Shown here: one piece after another, positions 1,887 through 59,970 of the stretch
How positions within the stretch are numbered: position 1 is the stretch's first letter
Layout: every line of letters starts with the position of its first letter
Assembly: GCA_958295745.1 (NCBI GenBank)
Contig: OY282370.1
Location: 310,001 to 374,000, forward strand
Direction of reading: 5' to 3'
DNA: 64,000 bases
From: an uncultured Acidimicrobiia bacterium
Lineage (GTDB): Bacteria > Actinomycetota > Acidimicrobiia > Spongiisociales > Spongiisociaceae
Translations under genes and position numbers: made by a program
Notes under the pieces: model-generated
Told to the model about the DNA's origin: nothing
What the model saw: only the letters and a program-made list of their open reading frames with translations
The model's database searches: none

Positions 1887-4800
1887 ATGGGTAATGACTT
1901 CGTATCCAGCCCCGGCCGTCCGATCCGACGGTCGTATGAGGTCCCTCCCGCACGAGTACACGGCAACGACTGGAGGGCACTGGAGGTCTCCGAACCCGAC
2001 TCATTCACACCTGCCTACTTCATTACCATCGTAATCCCCTACTTCGAGCAGCCAAGTGAACTGGAGCTGACTCTGGCAGGGATAGAGCGCCAGACTTACC
2101 CCCGTGAGCTGTTTGAGGTTGTGGTAGTGGACGATGGCTCCAACCCACCGCTCGCAACGCCGGAAACCTCCCTGGAACTGCGGGTGGAGTACCAGGAGGA
2201 CCTCGGTTTCGGGTTGGCCAGAGCGCGTAATACGGGTGCCAGAGCCGCTGCCGGTGATATCATAGTTTTCCTCGACTGCGACATGATCCCCGATGATGAC
2301 TGGCTCGTTGCGCACGCCCGATGGCACCACACCGCAAGCGACGCTCTAACCATGGGGTTTCGTTTCCATGTGGAAGTGGACGGTATCGACGCGACGGCTG
2401 TCCGCGAACGACCCGGCACGCTCGCAGAGCTGTTCGAGGGCCGTGAGGTGACGCACCCCGAGTGGATAGAGAACCACATGGCCAGGACCAACGAACTCAG
2501 TTCTGATGACGACGACCTGTTCAGGGTGGTCACGGGCGGCAACTTCGGTATTTCACGCAGCTTCTTCGAAGTCGTGGGGGGCTTTGACGAAACGTTCACA
2601 CAATGGGGCGCCGAGGACAGGGAGTTCGCCTATCGGGCCTACACCATGGGATCGTTGCTTGTGCCCGAGCGGAAGGCACAGTGTTGGCATCAGGGACCGG
2701 GCGCAACCCACTCCGAAGAGGAGCGTTCCAGTCTGGAGCTTCAACTTGCCAAGATGTCGCAACTTGTTGCCCACCGCGTCTACCGCCGCCAGTCTGCCGG
2801 CCGTAGCTTCATCGTGCCCGAGTACGTCGTAACGCTCAAACCCGCCAACTCGACCGCCGAGACCGTTCTCGCAAACACAGAGGAAATCCTCGCAAGCAGC
2901 GTCAGTGACCTGGCCGTGTGGATCGAGCAACGCCCGGTCGATCACTCCTTCGAATGGTTGCAACGACAGCTGAAGCCGGATCCGCGCGTGTTTTTCGGGC
3001 CGCCGGGCGGAGCGATCGATCACTTCCCGACAGCGCCGTTCCACATCACGCTGGACTGCGGATCGAGCTACGACTCCGGAATAATCGCCAGGTTGCGCGC
3101 GAACCTCGGCACCGCCGCCGCCGGAACAGCCGTGTTCACCGAGGGGGCGCCCGTCACCATTGTCCGGTCGTGGGCTTGGCACCGAGCCCGCCGCCTCGGT
3201 GTCGATATCTCCGAGGTCGGGGAAACAGTCGAGTTTACTCAGCGAAACAAGGTATCCGAGGAATTCGAGGAGCTGGCGCAGAGCTTGATAACAGGGTTCG
3301 ACAATCTAGAGCGCAGGATCGACAACCGGTTCACCGGACTAGAGAAAAGAATCGACAGACGCTCCAAGAAGACCGACAACCGGTTCACCGGACTAGAGAA
3401 GAAAATCGACAGACGCTCCAAGAAGACCGACAACCGGTTCACCGGACTAGAGAAGAAAATCGACAGACGCTCCAAGAAGACCGACAACCGGTTCACCGGA
3501 CTAGAGAAGAAAATCGACAACCGGTTCACCAAGCTGGAGCAAGAGATCGCGTCCACCTGGCTGTCCCGGCTGGGACATATCATCCGTCGTTTCTTCTCCG
3601 AGGCTGCATCTGTCCGCAGTCCCTCAGATGCCTGGCAGTTCGTACGCTGGTTATACAGATCCGCCCTCTCGCGTATCACGAAGAAGCCCCAGCGGCCTCT
3701 CGGAACGGTGCAGGCACAGCCCCCGGAAGCTGCGAAGGCGGGTCAAGAGCAGGCCTCGCACCCGCCGGGCGCGGATATCGCAGCTAAGGGCCCACCACAA
3801 GCCTCGTACTCACTGGGCGCGGATATCGTAGCTAAGGGCCCACGAGCGGAAGCCGTCTTCAAAACCTCACAGCGAGTACGCAATGATATCATCGGTGACC
3901 TCGGCCACCCGGACTTTCCGTTTCTTGGCGGTCGTCATGTAGACCTGCTGGTGATCGACTCCTCACAGTTGCTCAACGACCTCCCCGAGCTGCCGACATC
4001 GGCTCGGGTATTGAACCTCGGCAAGGCGTCGCCGATGCTGTCGGTGCCCGCATTCGATCCAGAGCAGATCAACCCGATCGGATGGATCCCGGATCACATC
4101 GATGATAATATTTCGCTGGGACCACCTGCCAACCTACCCGGGGGTGTGTCGGCCGGTCGTGCTGTAGACATCAACGATCCAGCGGCCTTGCGGCAATTTC
4201 ATCACTTGGAAGATATCGCCGAATACCACGACAACACTATTGTGCGCGCCGGTACGCTCGCGGCGCTCGCGGCCTCCGGAATCGTCGTCCATCTCGCCGA
4301 CACCGACCCTGGCTTGGAACAACATCTAGGAGGGGAGCTATACCGGCTGATGTCAGATGACCAGGTGATTGCGGCCGACAGCCACTCTCGGGAGGCCATC
4401 AGTATTGCGATGCGCAGGGCGGCGCTTCGTACGCATTCTCTGCGGTCCCGAGCACGCCATTCTCTCACCGAGGGCGGGGTTGGCGGGCATGACCTTCCGG
4501 AGGTATCTATCCTCATACCGACGAGGTGGCCCGACCGTCTCTCGACCGCGGTGGAAGCAGTCGCCCGGCAGCGTTATCCCCGCCTGGAGCTGGTACTGGG
4601 GCTTCACGGCGAGGGCTTCGACAGCCGATCTGTAGCCGCCGCTGTCGAGCGTCTCGGCCATCCGGTGGAGACGGTGCGGATCAGCGCGGAGGAACCGCTC
4701 GGCGCCGTACTGAATGCAGCTGTGACAGCATCAAGTGGAACCTTGCTAGCCAAGATGGACGACGACGATTCATATAGCGACGAGCACATATGGGATCTGG

Positions 4801-9809: not shown

Positions 9810-9917
9810 TATCTCTCACCAACCGCCATCACCCGACCTCTTTGAATAATCAGGGGGCTAAATTGCCGCCCGGTACCGCAACTCGACCCCCTCGCTGCCG
9901 TCCTAATCCCCGCCGCG

Positions 9918-10235
9918 GGAGAGCGCGAAAGAAAGGGGTTGACCTTTCCCCGGAAATGGGAGATGCTGTTGGGGTAGGAAAGAATCCGCCGCGTTGGTCC
10001 GGACGGCGGCGGAGAATGTCGGAAGCCTCGTCCGATGTCCGGCCTTCCGCGGAGGGTAACGGAACTAGGGCGAGCAGTGGCCGAAGCCGATGAGAAACTT
10101 CGGATCGGGGCCGGGTCAACGCGCCCGCACCCCCGGTTTGGCGCAGTGCGGCGGTGGCGGGGTGGGTAGCCCAACGGGCGGCGGTGGGTTGGGCAGGGTT
10201 TTCGCGATCTACCGGCGCCGGTTCGCACGGCCGGC
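9918..10235 (-). repeat. Dispersed repeat, uninterrupted copy A
   Basis: The reverse complement of this segment matches 58149-58224 followed directly by 59716-59970. Long shared blocks include GCCACCGCCGCACTGCGCC, GGCCGGACATCGGACGA, CCGTCCGGACCAACGCGGCG and CAGCATCTCCCATTT. Identity is roughly 80 percent by eye, and indels are not multiples of three, so the conservation is not coding. It fills most of the 626-bp gap between the divergent genes at 9739 and 10366, in which no convincing gene is seen. Its function is unknown. Confidence 0.9.
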
Positions 10236-10365
10236 CGCAGCAAAACACCCGCCGAACGAACCCGCCGGGCCGCCTCGACGAAGGGCGGAACGGTCTGCAC
10301 TTGCCGCCGGGCGCTCCGGCTATCAAACTCGCAGATGTGACAACGACCTGTCGACAGAGGCATCC

Positions 10366-34986: not shown

Positions 34987-35088
34987 CGCGAAAATCCCCG
35001 CAACAGGCCCCCTCCCTCTGGGCCCATCCCCCACCGCCGCCACTCAGGATCGGACCCTGTTCCCGGCGCGTGGGCCTGACTCCGGGCC
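34987..35088 (+). repeat. Diverged partial third copy of the dispersed repeat
   Basis: CGCGAAAAYCCCCGC, then TGGGCYCA-like, CACCGCCG and GGCGCGTGGRCCYGACYCCG occur in the same order as in copies A and B. The first and last blocks are 79 bp apart here and 81 bp apart in copy A. Similarity fades after 35088. Confidence 0.5.
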
Positions 35089-35132
35089 TTGGGCCGGGCG
35101 GAGCAGTGGATCCGACATGATCACCGCCCTCT

Positions 35133-35408
35133 CTAGAACTCGGCTGTGATATTTGTGCTTTGGTAACCATCACTATACAGCATAACTATAACAAAGCCAA
35201 GGCCCTTGTTCGGACGATCTTCGTAAACGGCAACGGGTGAAAGAACCCCCGGCGTGTTACCCACCTCAAAAAACTCCCAAAGATGCACACCGGACACACT
35301 CATCAGGAACCCGCCGCCCCATCCGCCCTCACCAAGCTCACACCCATCCAAGCGCAGACCTCGGCAGGCAACATCGGAGGGAACGGTCACCGTCTCGATC
35401 CGGCCCAA
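35133..35408 (-). CDS. Hypothetical 91-residue protein (doubtful)
   Basis: A frame from TTG at 35408 to 35133, 43 nt downstream of dtd on the same strand. The product has protein-like composition (LSPVAVYEDRPNKGLGFVIV, two Cys) and is less GC-biased than noise frames in this genome. It lacks a ribosome-binding site and overlaps no other feature. No family is recognised. It could also be random. Confidence 0.3.
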   Translation of the reverse strand: MGRIETVTVPSDVACRGLRLDGCELGEGGWGGGFLMSVSGVHLWEFFEVGNTPGVLSPVAVYEDRPNKGLGFVIVMLYSDGYQSTNITAEF

Positions 35409-50528: not shown

Positions 50529-51785
50529 CTAACACCTCTGATCGGGGGGAAGAGTCGGCACGCATATCCGAAAGGTGGAACCCTCCCCCAGTCGGCTTTC
50601 CACCTCTACCCGGCCCCGGTGCAGGTCGGCCACGTGCTTGACGATCGCCAAGCCCAACCCGGTGCCGCCGGTGGTCCGGGAACGGGCCTCGTCCACCCGG
50701 TAGAAACGTTCGAATATGCGGGGTAGATCGGCGGCGGGGATGCCGGAACCGTTGTCGGCGACCACCACCCTGGCCTCGCCGTTCTCCGCGCCCACCGAGA
50801 CCTTCACCCATCCGTCCTCGGGGGTGTGGCGGACGGCGTTCTCCAGCAGGTTCCGAAAGGCGAGGGCCATATCGGACGGGTTGCCGACCACAGGGGTGGG
50901 GGCGGCCCCGAACTCCACGACCGGGCGCGAGAAGCCGAAGCGCCGCACCTCTTCCCCGAGTACGTCGGCCAGGTCGAACGGCGCCGCCGCCAAGCCGCCG
51001 GATTCGAGGCGCGACAGATCCAGCAGGTCGTTCACGATCCTCGACATGCGGACCGCGTTGTCGAGAATGCGCCCCGAGAAGTCCAGCACCACCTCGGGAT
51101 CGTCTTCCAAGGCCACCAGCACCGTCTCGGCCGCGGCCTGGATCGCCGCTACCGGGGTCTTGAGCTCGTGAGAGGCCGCGGCCACGAACTCCTCCCGCAT
51201 CCGGTCGGTCCGCCGACGCTCGGTTATGTCGACCAGGTGGATCATGATCAGGCCGTCGCCTCCCGGCGGGCGGGCCGAGACCCCGATGGTGCGGCGCGGA
51301 AAACCCTGGACGAACTGCCCGGAGGAAGACCGGCCTCGGCGCGCCTCGGCTATGACCGAGCGGACCGCGGTCGGCATCGGTGTTCCGGGCTCGGTCACCC
51401 GCTCACCCAGAAAATCGGCCGCCGCCGGATTGGCGTACACCGGCCGCCCGCCCTCCATCGCCATCACCCCCACCGGCAGCGAGGACAGAAGGGCGGTGTG
51501 CAGCTCCTCACGGTCGGCCGACCGGGCGGCCTCGGCCCTCAGCTCCTGGAAGCGGCGGCTGCGTTCCGCTTCTATCCGGCGGCGGAGGCGCCCCGCCCAC
51601 AACAAAGCCCCCAGACCCGCCGAGGCCGCCGCGCCGCCCACCAGCGACCAAGGCAACGGGGCCCAGAGCGCCGCCCCGCCGGCCGCGGCCACAGCAGGCA
51701 GATACACCCACCGCAGAACCGCCAAAAGCAAGGGGGGCGCGGGCCGTCCATCGGCCGGTTCGCCGGATCTCGGCCGGCTCACCAT
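50529..51785 (-). CDS. Sensor histidine kinase, PhoR/SenX3-like
   Basis: 418 residues from the ATG at 51785. Two N-terminal helices (about 22-68) are followed by a PAS-like domain (LLSSLPVGVMAMEGGRPVYAN). The HisKA box is FVAAASHELKTPVAAIQ (phospho-His near 190). The HATPase domain has NLLENAVRHTP, DNGSGIP and GGTGLGLAIVKHVADLH. It lies downstream of the response regulator and pst genes, so it is probably the phosphate-limitation sensor working with PhoU and Pst. A 166-bp tandem duplication covers its start, so the chosen ATG is the second of two near-identical starts. Confidence 0.88.
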   Translation of the reverse strand: MVSRPRSGEPADGRPAPPLLLAVLRWVYLPAVAAAGGAALWAPLPWSLVGGAAASAGLGALLWAGRLRRRIEAERSRRFQELRAEAARSADREELHTALLSSLPVGVMAMEGGRPVYANPAAADFLGERVTEPGTPMPTAVRSVIAEARRGRSSSGQFVQGFPRRTIGVSARPPGGDGLIMIHLVDITERRRTDRMREEFVAAASHELKTPVAAIQAAAETVLVALEDDPEVVLDFSGRILDNAVRMSRIVNDLLDLSRLESGGLAAAPFDLADVLGEEVRRFGFSRPVVEFGAAPTPVVGNPSDMALAFRNLLENAVRHTPEDGWVKVSVGAENGEARVVVADNGSGIPAADLPRIFERFYRVDEARSRTTGGTGLGLAIVKHVADLHRGRVEVESRLGEGSTFRICVPTLPPDQRC

Positions 51786-51988
51786 TTCAGGGCGCCGCCG
51801 TGAAGTGAACAGCCCGGCGGCGCGGGGCCCAGAGCGCCGCCCTGCCGGCCGCGGCCACAGCAGGCAGGTACACCCACCGCAGAACCGCCGAAAGCGAAGG
51901 GGGCGCGGGCCGTCCATCGGCCGGTTCGCCGGATCTCGGCCGGCTCACCATTTCAGGGCGCCGCCGTGAAGTGAACAGCCCGGCGGCG
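51657..51988 (-). repeat. 166-bp tandem direct duplication over the kinase start
   Basis: Copies 51657-51822 and 51823-51988 differ at only a few positions. The period is 166 bp, which is not a multiple of three. The downstream copy (in gene order) supplies the true kinase start at 51785. The upstream copy begins an identical N-terminus that runs out of frame and stops at 51787. The remaining bases to the response regulator stop (51989-52070) show only short repeats of the type TATCnGGnGcATcC. Confidence 0.93.
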
Positions 51989-58148: not shown

Positions 58149-58224
58149 GCCGGCCAGACCAGCCGCAGGTGAACAGCCAGCGGCAGACCGCGAAAACCCC
58201 GCCCGACCTCCGCCGCCCGTTGGG
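58149..58224 (+). repeat. Dispersed repeat copy B, left part (interrupted)
   Basis: CGCGAAAACCCCGCCCGACC and CCGCCGCCCGTTGGG match the reverse complement of copy A up to base 58224, where similarity breaks at the left end of the IS110 element. The remainder resumes at 59716. The sequence between pstS and this point (57847-58148) holds the Pho box and nothing else recognisable. Confidence 0.85.
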
Positions 58225-58234
58225 ATCCCCTTAC

Positions 58235-58472
58235 CGTGTTCTGGTATGTCCCCGTGGGATGATTCGGGGATGGTTGCCCGTTCACGGCGGGTAGGGCTTC
58301 GGGTTCCTGTCAGATGGATGACTTGGGGTGTGGTGCCGCCCGCCGTGTTGGGTGTGGTTGACCTCTAACAGGAACATGCTCCCAGGTTCTGGGGCTTTGT
58401 AAGGTGGTTGACGGCAGCTGCGCCCTGTGGGCGGGTGACCTGTGGAAAAGCTGATTTCGTCGGAAGGAGACG
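58235..58472 (+). ncRNA. Candidate bridge RNA region of the IS110 element
   Basis: Non-coding sequence between the left end and the transposase. ACAGGAACA at 58368-58376 is identical to the right end (59698-59706). GTAAGG at 58399-58404 is complementary to CCTTAC at the left end (58229-58234). Between them a hairpin (CCCAG 58381-58385 with CTGGG 58389-58393) could cap an internal loop. That is the order reported for a donor-binding loop. A further hairpin CGCCC/GGGCG is at 58421-58433. Exact RNA ends are unknown. Confidence 0.45.
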
Positions 58473-59690
58473 ATGATGGATCCCACAGGGATCGGGGTGT
58501 TCGTGGGTGTGGACGTAGCCAAAGAAGAACATTTCTGCCAGGCGATAGGCGCTGAGGGAGCTGGGCTGTTCGCCCGGGCGGTGGGCAACAACGAAGCCGA
58601 CCTGGAAGGAATGATCGACCAGGCCGAGGGGTCGGGGCGGGTGGTGCTGGTGGTCGACACCACCAGCTCGGGTGCTCATCTGCTGCTGGCGGCGGCAGCC
58701 CGCCGGCGGATACCCGTGGCGTATGTGACCGGTCTCCAGATGCGCCGAGCGGCGGAACTGTACGCAGGAGTAGCCAAGACCGACCCCCGAGACGCGTTCG
58801 TGTTGGCGGACTTCGCCCGCCGCAACGCCGATCGTCTGGCTTGGGTAACGATCACCGACGAGGTACTGACCCGGATGCGGGTCCTGTCGGGCCACGACGA
58901 AGACCTAGCAGCCGACTCTACCCGGACGATCAACCGCCTCCGGGACGCGATGGTGTCTGTATCCCCTGGTCTGGAGCGTGTTCTGGGTTCCAAACTAGCC
59001 CAGAGGGGCGTCCGTGAGCTGCTGGTACGCTGGCCTACCCCAACTGCCATGCGAGCAGCGGGCAAGACACGAATACGAAACTTGTTGAAAAAGTATTATT
59101 CCAACAAGCCGCACAAAGCCGTCGAGCTGACAGACCGGATCTGGGTAGCGCTCGGAGCTCAGACCATCACCCTGGCGGGCGAAGCCACCTGGGGAGAGGT
59201 CATCACCAAAAAGGTAGACGCCCTCGAGCGTATCACAGCCGAACGGAAAGAACTCACCGCGGCCATCGAGGAAGTGTTCCCATCCCACCCTTTAGCCGAG
59301 ATACTGATCTCCGTACCAGGGATCGGCGTCCGGACCGGCGCCCGCATCCTGACCGAGGTCGGTGACCCCCACCGGTTCGCCAACGGATCCCGCCTAGCGT
59401 CCTACGCCGGCCTCGCCCCGACCATCCGCCGATCCGGCCGAACCCAAAACACCACCCGCCGCCACCCCGGCGGGAACCACCGACTCAAAAACGCCATGTA
59501 CTGGACCGCGTTCTCAGCCTCCCGATACGACCCAGCCGCCCGCGTCTACTACCAACGCAAACGAACCGAAGGCAAATCCCACACCACCGCCCTCCTCTGC
59601 GTCGCCCGCCGCCGATGCGACCTCATACTCGCCGTACTCAAAAACCAAACCCTCTACAACCCACCCGAACCAGCCCCCGAACCCGTTTGA
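58473..59690 (+). CDS. IS110-family transposase (DEDD plus Transposase_20)
   Basis: 405 residues, apparently intact, with GGAAGGAG before the ATG. The RuvC-like part has GVFVGVDVAKEEHF (first Asp near 13), VVDTTSSGAHLLLAAAARR and KTDPRDAFVLADFAR near 103-117. The C-terminal Transposase_20 domain has ILISVPGIGVRTGARILTEV and LASYAGLAPTIRRSGRTQNT, where the SG motif is the likely serine nucleophile region. IS110 recombinases use a bridge RNA to pair donor and target DNA. It is inserted in a repeat, not in a gene. Confidence 0.93.
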   Translation: MMDPTGIGVFVGVDVAKEEHFCQAIGAEGAGLFARAVGNNEADLEGMIDQAEGSGRVVLVVDTTSSGAHLLLAAAARRRIPVAYVTGLQMRRAAELYAGVAKTDPRDAFVLADFARRNADRLAWVTITDEVLTRMRVLSGHDEDLAADSTRTINRLRDAMVSVSPGLERVLGSKLAQRGVRELLVRWPTPTAMRAAGKTRIRNLLKKYYSNKPHKAVELTDRIWVALGAQTITLAGEATWGEVITKKVDALERITAERKELTAAIEEVFPSHPLAEILISVPGIGVRTGARILTEVGDPHRFANGSRLASYAGLAPTIRRSGRTQNTTRRHPGGNHRLKNAMYWTAFSASRYDPAARVYYQRKRTEGKSHTTALLCVARRRCDLILAVLKNQTLYNPPEPAPEPV

Positions 59691-59715
59691 CAAACCGACA
59701 GGAACACACCCCCGC

Positions 59716-59970
59716 CACACCCCCGCCACCGCCGCACTGCGCCAGGACCGGGGGTTTTGGGCGCGTGGACCCGACCCCGATCCGAAATAGTCTTTCGGCT
59801 TCGGCTACTGCCCGCCCGCCGTTCCGTTACCCCCCGCAGAGGGCCGGACATCGGACGAGACTTCCGATATTCCTCCACCGCCGTCCGGACCAACGCGGCG
59901 GATCTCTTCTTCCCCTACAGCATCTCCCATTTTCGAGGAAACGTCAACCCCTATGTTTCGCGTTCTCCTT
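59716..59970 (+). repeat. Dispersed repeat copy B, right part
   Basis: From CACACCCCCGCCACCGCC onwards the sequence again follows the reverse complement of copy A through CATCTCCCATTT and CGTCAACCCC to about 59970. At its start, CACACCCCCGC occurs twice in tandem (59705-59715 and 59716-59726), once on each side of the inferred right end of the IS. The remaining 90 bp before the next gene show nothing clear. Confidence 0.88.

What the first reader, a model, noticed from the sequence alone, without database searches (positions are those of the whole stretch)
58225..59715. IS110 element caught inside a repeat, with the empty site present in the same window
Similarity between copies A and B is broken exactly around the transposase gene: left match ends at GTTGGG (58224), right match restarts near 59716. 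The uninterrupted copy shows the short sequence CTACC at this point. This gives natural boundaries for an element class whose ends are hard to see. Some IS110 elements are known to target repeated extragenic sequences.
Basis: partly seen in the sequence, partly recalled or inferred. Interest (0 to 1): 0.65.

Follow-up and report, generated by a model that had tools for sequence, protein, structure and literature searches.

The report
Jumping gene aimed at genomic repeats
This is a jumping gene that appears to carry its own RNA address label; its sister copies carry slightly different labels that mostly suit the families of short repeats where they landed, and the kind of element is already known, but this genome shows the targeting unusually clearly.

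Summary
An IS110-family element occupies window 58230-59707 (1478 bp), a few bases inside the reported limits, within an intergenic repeat whose uninterrupted relative lies near 9907-10236 (minus strand). The genome holds the element at six loci, all with the same ends. Five sit at the equivalent point of small-hairpin repeats of three families; one interrupts a VanW-like gene. The 243-nt left end is predicted to make a bridge RNA. Its guide segments differ between copies and mostly track the repeat entered: uninterrupted family-A sites fit L001/L006-type guides best, family-B/C sites L003/L005-type (Fisher p = 1.5e-4; repeats are related). Joining the ends creates TTGACA-17-TACC[G/T]T in 9 of 9 loci examined. 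Against: in ten insertions from other genomes the left guide matches no better than shuffled, L006's right base mismatches, and L004 does not fit its own guide. A second, distant IS110 lineage occupies the same repeat superfamily in 6 of 6 copies, about 13 bp further along. Verdict: new member of a known kind, with a good natural experiment in guide divergence.

The parts
58230..59707 (+). whole IS110-family element, CTTACC...GACAGGAACAC, 1478 bp
   Evidence: Ends shared by all intact copies and placed by empty sites of sister copies; joining exactly these ends gives a 17-bp promoter spacer.
58220..58229 (+). left target TTGGGATCCC
   Evidence: Flank left of the crossover.
59708..59716 (+). 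right target ACCCCCGCC
   Evidence: Flank right of the crossover.
58230..58472 (+). left end, 243 nt non-coding, predicted to encode the bridge RNA
   Evidence: Non-coding stretch before the ORF; conserved alignment and consensus fold in ten elements.
58266..58415 (+). predicted bridge RNA, two-loop part used for covariance model R1
   Evidence: R1 matches 25 of 395 genomes of the class.
58299..58308 (+). putative left target guide TCGGGTTCCT
   Evidence: Most variable segment of a conserved stem-loop; among the leading same-sense diagonals in an unbiased scan; scores.
58325..58329 (+). putative right target guide GGGGT (reverse complement ACCCC = first five bases of the right target)
   Evidence: Last base T/C/A complements target A/G/T in L001/L003/L005; top antisense diagonal z=4.5.
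58367..58377 (+). putative left donor guide AACAGGAACAT
   Evidence: Repeats the element's right end ACAGGAACA; both change to AGGGACA in L102 and L103.
58399..58407 (+). putative right donor guide GTAAGGTGG
   Evidence: Complement of CTTAC at the element start; GTAAA where the start is TTTAC in L102.
58473..59690 (+). transposase (recombinase) gene, 405 aa
   Evidence: PF01548 9e-37, PF02371 1.1e-22; NF033542 3.7e-61, above cut-off; aligns with IS621 and ISCro4 recombinases of solved structure.
59687..59692 (+). TTGACA, -35-like half of the junction promoter
   Evidence: 17 bp from TACCGT when the ends are joined.
58232..58237 (+). TACCGT, -10-like half of the junction promoter
59697..59707 (+). 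right end / left donor GACAGGAACAC
58181..59968 (+). interrupted family-A repeat (left part 58181-58229, right part 59721-59968 by alignment)
9907..10236 (-). uninterrupted family-A repeat (approximate limits); equivalent point between 10164 and 10163

Best explanation
It is an IS110-group insertion sequence. Shown from sequence: the same ends in all copies, insertion without gain or loss of target bases where an exact empty site is available, a long non-coding left end predicted to fold into two loops, guide-like segments that mostly match the repeat entered, and a -35 at one end and a -10 at the other that make a promoter only when the ends are joined. Inferred from published IS110 work: the element excises as a circle, the junction promoter makes a bridge RNA and the recombinase, the RNA's first loop pairs with the target (left guide with the bottom strand, right guide with the top strand), the second loop pairs with the joined ends, and the recombinase exchanges strands to insert. 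Because the target lies at the foot of a short hairpin present in dozens of repeats, the element has many probably harmless landing sites. Copies whose guides differ by a few bases and a one-base length change fit different repeat families.
For: Protein family and structure matches. Six loci with common ends. Five of six in repeats covering roughly 0.4% of the genome (estimate, 48 sites x 300 bp; binomial 9e-12). Empty sites. Own guide scores over 10 left + 5 right positions with a 0/1 slip: L001 12, L003 14, L005 12, L006 11 of 15, reached by 9e-5, 0, 2e-4 and 1e-3 of 124540 window positions; the true pairing of guides to targets ranks first of 24 permutations in three of four scorings and ties for first in the strictest. 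An unbiased scan of RNA against target positions puts the best right-hand antisense diagonal (z 4.5) and leading left-hand same-sense diagonals where expected. Guide class follows repeat family (8 of 10 family A fit L001/L006 best; 28 of 33 family B+C fit L003/L005 best, 4 fit L006, 1 four-way tie dropped; Fisher 1.5e-4). Junction promoter in 9 of 9 loci examined.
Against: In ten insertions from other genomes the left guide matches its target no better than shuffled guides (42 vs mean 41.0, fraction 0.42); with wobble the pooled result of all 14 weakens (0.08 fixed register, 0.006 with slip). Other diagonals in the scan reach z 3-3.9, so the left-hand signal alone is not unique. L006's right target base is T where its guide predicts G. 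L005 needs a one-base shift of register. L004 does not fit its own guide (7-8 of 15). Family-C sites are fitted equally by L003 and L005 guides in 4 of 6, so guides separate A from B/C but not B from C. Repeats are related, so counts are not independent. No Rfam family matched the stretch. RNA expression and activity are untested.
Confidence: 0.85

Rival explanations
1. The protein alone recognises a degenerate motif (hairpin GGG...CC[C/T]^NCCCC) and guide differences are drift; apparent guide-target matches come from shared G+C-rich composition.
For: Insertions in other genomes share CCC^CCCC-like sites but show no left-guide match above shuffled.
Against: The right-guide base follows the target base in L001, L003 and L005; 15-position scores are rare in the same window; guide class follows repeat family; published IS110 work shows RNA-guided choice (PMC11208160, PMC11187229, passages).
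Confidence: 0.1
2. Repeats simply are safe ground: the element inserts broadly and only insertions in non-essential repeats survive.
For: The repeats look intergenic, though ORF context was not counted.
Against: Insertion is at one point of the repeat in five of five repeat loci, always in the same orientation relative to the hairpin; survival alone does not fix the base.
Confidence: 0.03
3. The element and the repeat form one unit copied together, not an insertion into a pre-existing repeat.
For: L002 and L003 share the same type of flank.
Against: Flanks of L001/L006, L003 and L005 are from different repeat families while the elements are 87-91% alike; 43 uninterrupted repeats read through the site; L004 has no repeat flank.
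Confidence: 0.02

Closest known systems
IS621 (IS110 group, E. coli; bridge RNA)
   Same: DEDD plus Transposase_20 recombinase, long non-coding left end with target and donor loops, junction promoter, insertion into short palindromic extragenic repeats (PMC11208160 and PMC11208158, passages; Choi 2003 seen only as a reference entry).
   Different: Protein of 405 aa against a 328-residue chain, similarity mainly in the C-terminal domain; a CT core on both sides is not apparent here; the repeats are longer and of three families.
ISPpu9, ISPpu10, ISPa11, ISRm19 (IS110-family elements in REP sequences)
   Same: All copies in repeats (PMC1525189, passages and table: 7/7, 7/7, 6/6, 4/4).
   Different: Here copies of one element are spread over three repeat families with differing guides, and one is in a gene.
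ISEc11 / ISXne4 natural reprogramming (IS1111 family, seekRNA)
   Same: Related elements whose RNA guide segments differ in step with a different target (PMC11187229, passages).
   Different: There two different elements; here sister copies within one genome. IS1111 subterminal inverted repeats were not seen here.

Membership tests
IS110 family (IS110 group) | DEDD_Tnp_IS110 and Transposase_20 domains | tested here: met
   NF033542 above its cut-off.
IS110 family (IS110 group) | Longer non-coding region upstream of the transposase (IS110 group) rather than downstream (IS1111) | tested here: met
   243 nt left, 17 nt right.
IS110 family (IS110 group) | No multi-base target-site duplication and no long terminal inverted repeats | tested here: met
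   L003 and L005 junctions against empty sites show no gain or loss; no terminal inverted repeat seen by eye.
IS110 family (IS110 group) | Two-loop bridge RNA with target and donor guides | tested here: inconclusive
   Fold and guides predicted; only 2 of 38 pairs show compensatory change; expression not testable here.
IS110 family (IS110 group) | Circle junction creates a promoter | tested here: met
   Sequence only: TTGACA-17-TACC[G/T]T in 9 of 9 loci examined.
IS621-like subgroup | CT core dinucleotide at both ends | tested here: inconclusive
   Donor junction CAC|CT; target bases are NC after and CC or CT before the crossover, so the core cannot be assigned from sequence.
IS1111 group | Subterminal inverted repeats and downstream non-coding region | tested here: not met
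   Right non-coding end is 17 nt; subterminal repeats not seen by eye.

The most novel reading that the evidence does not exclude
Guide RNAs are shared between copies. L004 is identical over 1476 bp to L002 and L003 yet lies at a site that fits not its own guide (7 of 15) but that of L006 (12 of 15), a copy whose transposase is truncated. A transposase-dead copy may thus still steer its active sisters, so that a family of copies works as a pool of addresses.
Probability: 0.15. Interest if true: 0.6.

Novelty: new member of a known kind. Interest (0 to 1): 0.42.

Why it matters
One genome holds sister copies with different guides, dozens of uninterrupted target repeats, a transposase-dead derivative, one off-repeat insertion and a second IS110 lineage in the same repeats. 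That makes two open matters testable by comparison and simple assays: how bridge RNA guides change while the recombinase stays nearly the same, and whether guides act between copies. It also extends IS110 use of hairpin repeats to what is probably an acidimicrobial actinobacterium (inferred from named relatives).

Tried and rejected
Rfam on the window stretch and on eight repeat-bearing loci gave nothing useful (one weak miRNA hit far below its cut-off). Viral contigs: no relative. Genome contigs gave nine loci. Short bridge-RNA-like hits without a transposase (L141, L159, and the unfetched G010 C6/C30 hits) first looked like stand-alone bridge RNAs; L141 and L159 are cut by contig ends, so that idea was dropped for them. 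L143, L146, L148 and L149 are left-end fragments that stop soon after the target loop and were left as probable relics.

Left-guide matching in relatives was tested and failed. That test used ten insertions (L100, L104, L131-L134, L137, L139, L156, L158). Other R1 loci were not used because a left end or guide was not found by my pattern, or the copy was broken or cut (L135, L136, L138, L140-L155, L157, L159); L101, L102, L103 and L128 are the same places as L131, L133, L137 and L132. In one search the left flanks were cut one base short of the crossover; corrected, whose numbers are used. The L004 statistic depends on the yardstick: 12 of 15 for L006 is reached by 1 of 340 window sites of the form CC[C/T]^NCNCC, but best-of-four guides reaches 12 at 10 of 340, so it is suggestive only. 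The core dinucleotide could not be settled.

Full report
What was checked. The window's transposase gene (58473-59690, 405 aa) is IS110-type by Pfam and NCBIfam and aligns with the solved IS621 and ISCro4 recombinases in the C-terminal domain, with the KTD..DA motif weakly matched in the N-terminal one. The surrounding repeat and its uninterrupted relative at about 9907-10236 are confirmed.

Copies and ends. DNA search of the own genome finds six loci: L001 (this one), L002, L003, L004, L005 and L006. L002, L003 and L004 are identical over 1476 bp; L001 is 91% identical to them and 90% to L005, and L005 is 87% identical to them. L002 carries an extra first 153 or so bases of the left end in front of the full copy. 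L006 has the left end and the first part of the transposase gene, then joins the right flank. All start CTTACCGTG and the intact ones end GACAGGAACAC. The joined flanks of L003 match six uninterrupted repeats at 93-95% through the junction, and the L005 site reads through in L111 and L112, so nothing was gained or lost there. In L004 the flanks also appear to read in one frame across the same crossover (by eye).

Targets. Five of six loci lie in repeats: L001 and L006 in family A, L002 and L003 in family B, L005 in family C. Each family has a short hairpin ending in GGG, and the crossover is 3-6 bases after that GGG. Family A has short inverted ends, AGAnCGCGAAAA and TTTCGCGTTCT. L004 interrupts a gene for a protein with SLH and VanW-like domains. 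Estimated at 48 sites of 300 bp, repeats cover about 0.4% of the genome, so five of six by chance is about 9e-12; the 300 bp and the 48 are estimates.

Bridge RNA. The left end is conserved and predicted to fold into two loops in ten elements (38 pairs, 2 with compensatory change). The first loop holds the most variable segment. Read as guides: L001 TCGGGTTCC and GGGGT, L003 GTCGGGCCC and GGGGC, L005 GCCGGGCCC and GGGGA, L006 ACGGGTTGCC and GGGGC. The right guide's last base complements the first right-target base in L001, L003 and L005 but not in L006. Scores and permutations are; an unbiased scan puts the signals at the expected places, though other diagonals come close on the left. The donor loop repeats the right end (ACAGGAACA) and the complement of the left start (GTAAG), with parallel changes in L102. 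Joining the ends gives TTGACA-17-TACC[G/T]T in 9 of 9 loci examined (L001, L003, L005, L100, L132, L133, L137, L134, L158); TTGACA occurs five times in the window on both strands and none of the five has TAnnnT at 16-18.

Guides against repeats. Each of 43 uninterrupted sites was scored with the four guides. Family A: 8 of 10 fit L001 and/or L006 best, 2 fit L003/L005. Family B: 22 of 27 fit L003 and/or L005 best, 4 fit L006, 1 ties four ways. Family C: 6 of 6 fit L003 and/or L005; these six were chosen by me from the 20 loci as holding the left block. Fisher p is 1.5e-4 without the tie. Guides separate A from B/C but do not separate B from C.

Results against. In ten insertions from other genomes left guides fit no better than shuffled. 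L004 does not fit its own guide. L005 needs a one-base slip. Wobble pairing weakens the pooled test in fixed register (0.08).

L004 and sharing of guides. L004's site scores 12 of 15 with the L006 guide and 7 with its own in fixed register. Among 340 window sites with the same frame word, 1 reaches 12 with L006 and none reaches the L006-minus-L003 difference of 5; but best-of-four reaches 12 at 10 of 340, and with wobble the difference is reached by 6 of 340. The reading that L006, or a lost relative, guided L004 in trans is possible, not shown. Bridge RNA supplied in trans works for IS621 in the laboratory (PMC11208160, passages).

Second lineage. Six distant IS110 genes in the genome were fetched. 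They are 89-97% alike over the long aligned stretches, belong to IS110 by Pfam and NCBIfam (tested on L164), and all six left junctions lie in the same repeat superfamily after CCCCCACC[G/T]CC, about 13 bp beyond the first lineage's crossover; L166 holds two uninterrupted repeats that show the site. Thus two distant IS110 lineages use adjacent points of the same repeats. The guides of the second lineage were not analysed.

Placing it. Defining IS110-group features tested were met, apart from the bridge RNA itself, which rests on prediction. IS110 elements in REP sequences are long known (PMC1525189, passages and table), and natural change of guide with target has been described for IS1111 elements (PMC11187229, passages). 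I found no paper describing guide divergence among sister copies in one genome, or guide sharing, in the searches, which cover open-licence papers only; covariation of guides and targets over thousands of IS110 elements is in print (PMC11208160, passages).

Relatives. R1 matches 25 of 395 genomes of the class. Named relatives are Acidimicrobiia or Acidimicrobiales, or MAGs named only 'bacterium'; two same-family genomes (G010, G002) have contigs of the same lengths as named ones (95056 and 13747 bp), hence the inferred affiliation.

Noticed in passing
L160-L165 (own genome contig C1 near 106, 138, 1492, 1597, 2505 and 2639 kb): A second IS110 lineage, 6 of 6 copies inside the same repeat superfamily, about 13 bp beyond the first lineage's insertion point.
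   Followed up: partly
L002:1352-1504: A partial left end (about 153 bp, up to the left donor guide) sits directly before a full copy; may be self-insertion followed by homologous recombination.
   Followed up: no
L006:1557-2055: Deletion derivative: left end and start of the transposase gene joined exactly to the right target; the last two bases, AC, are shared with the lost right end.
   Followed up: partly
window 34987-35209: Another uninterrupted repeat of the superfamily in the window.
   Followed up: no
L143, L146, L148, L149: Left-end fragments ending soon after the target loop, without a transposase match in the locus; two of their genomes (G006, G014) had no protein match.
   Followed up: partly
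L147: Bridge-RNA-like left end followed within about 65 bases by only the last ~40 residues of a transposase, like a miniature derivative.
   Followed up: no
window 3263-3532 and 51657-51988: Tandem repeats: 54-nt-period units and two 166-nt units 97% alike.
   Followed up: no
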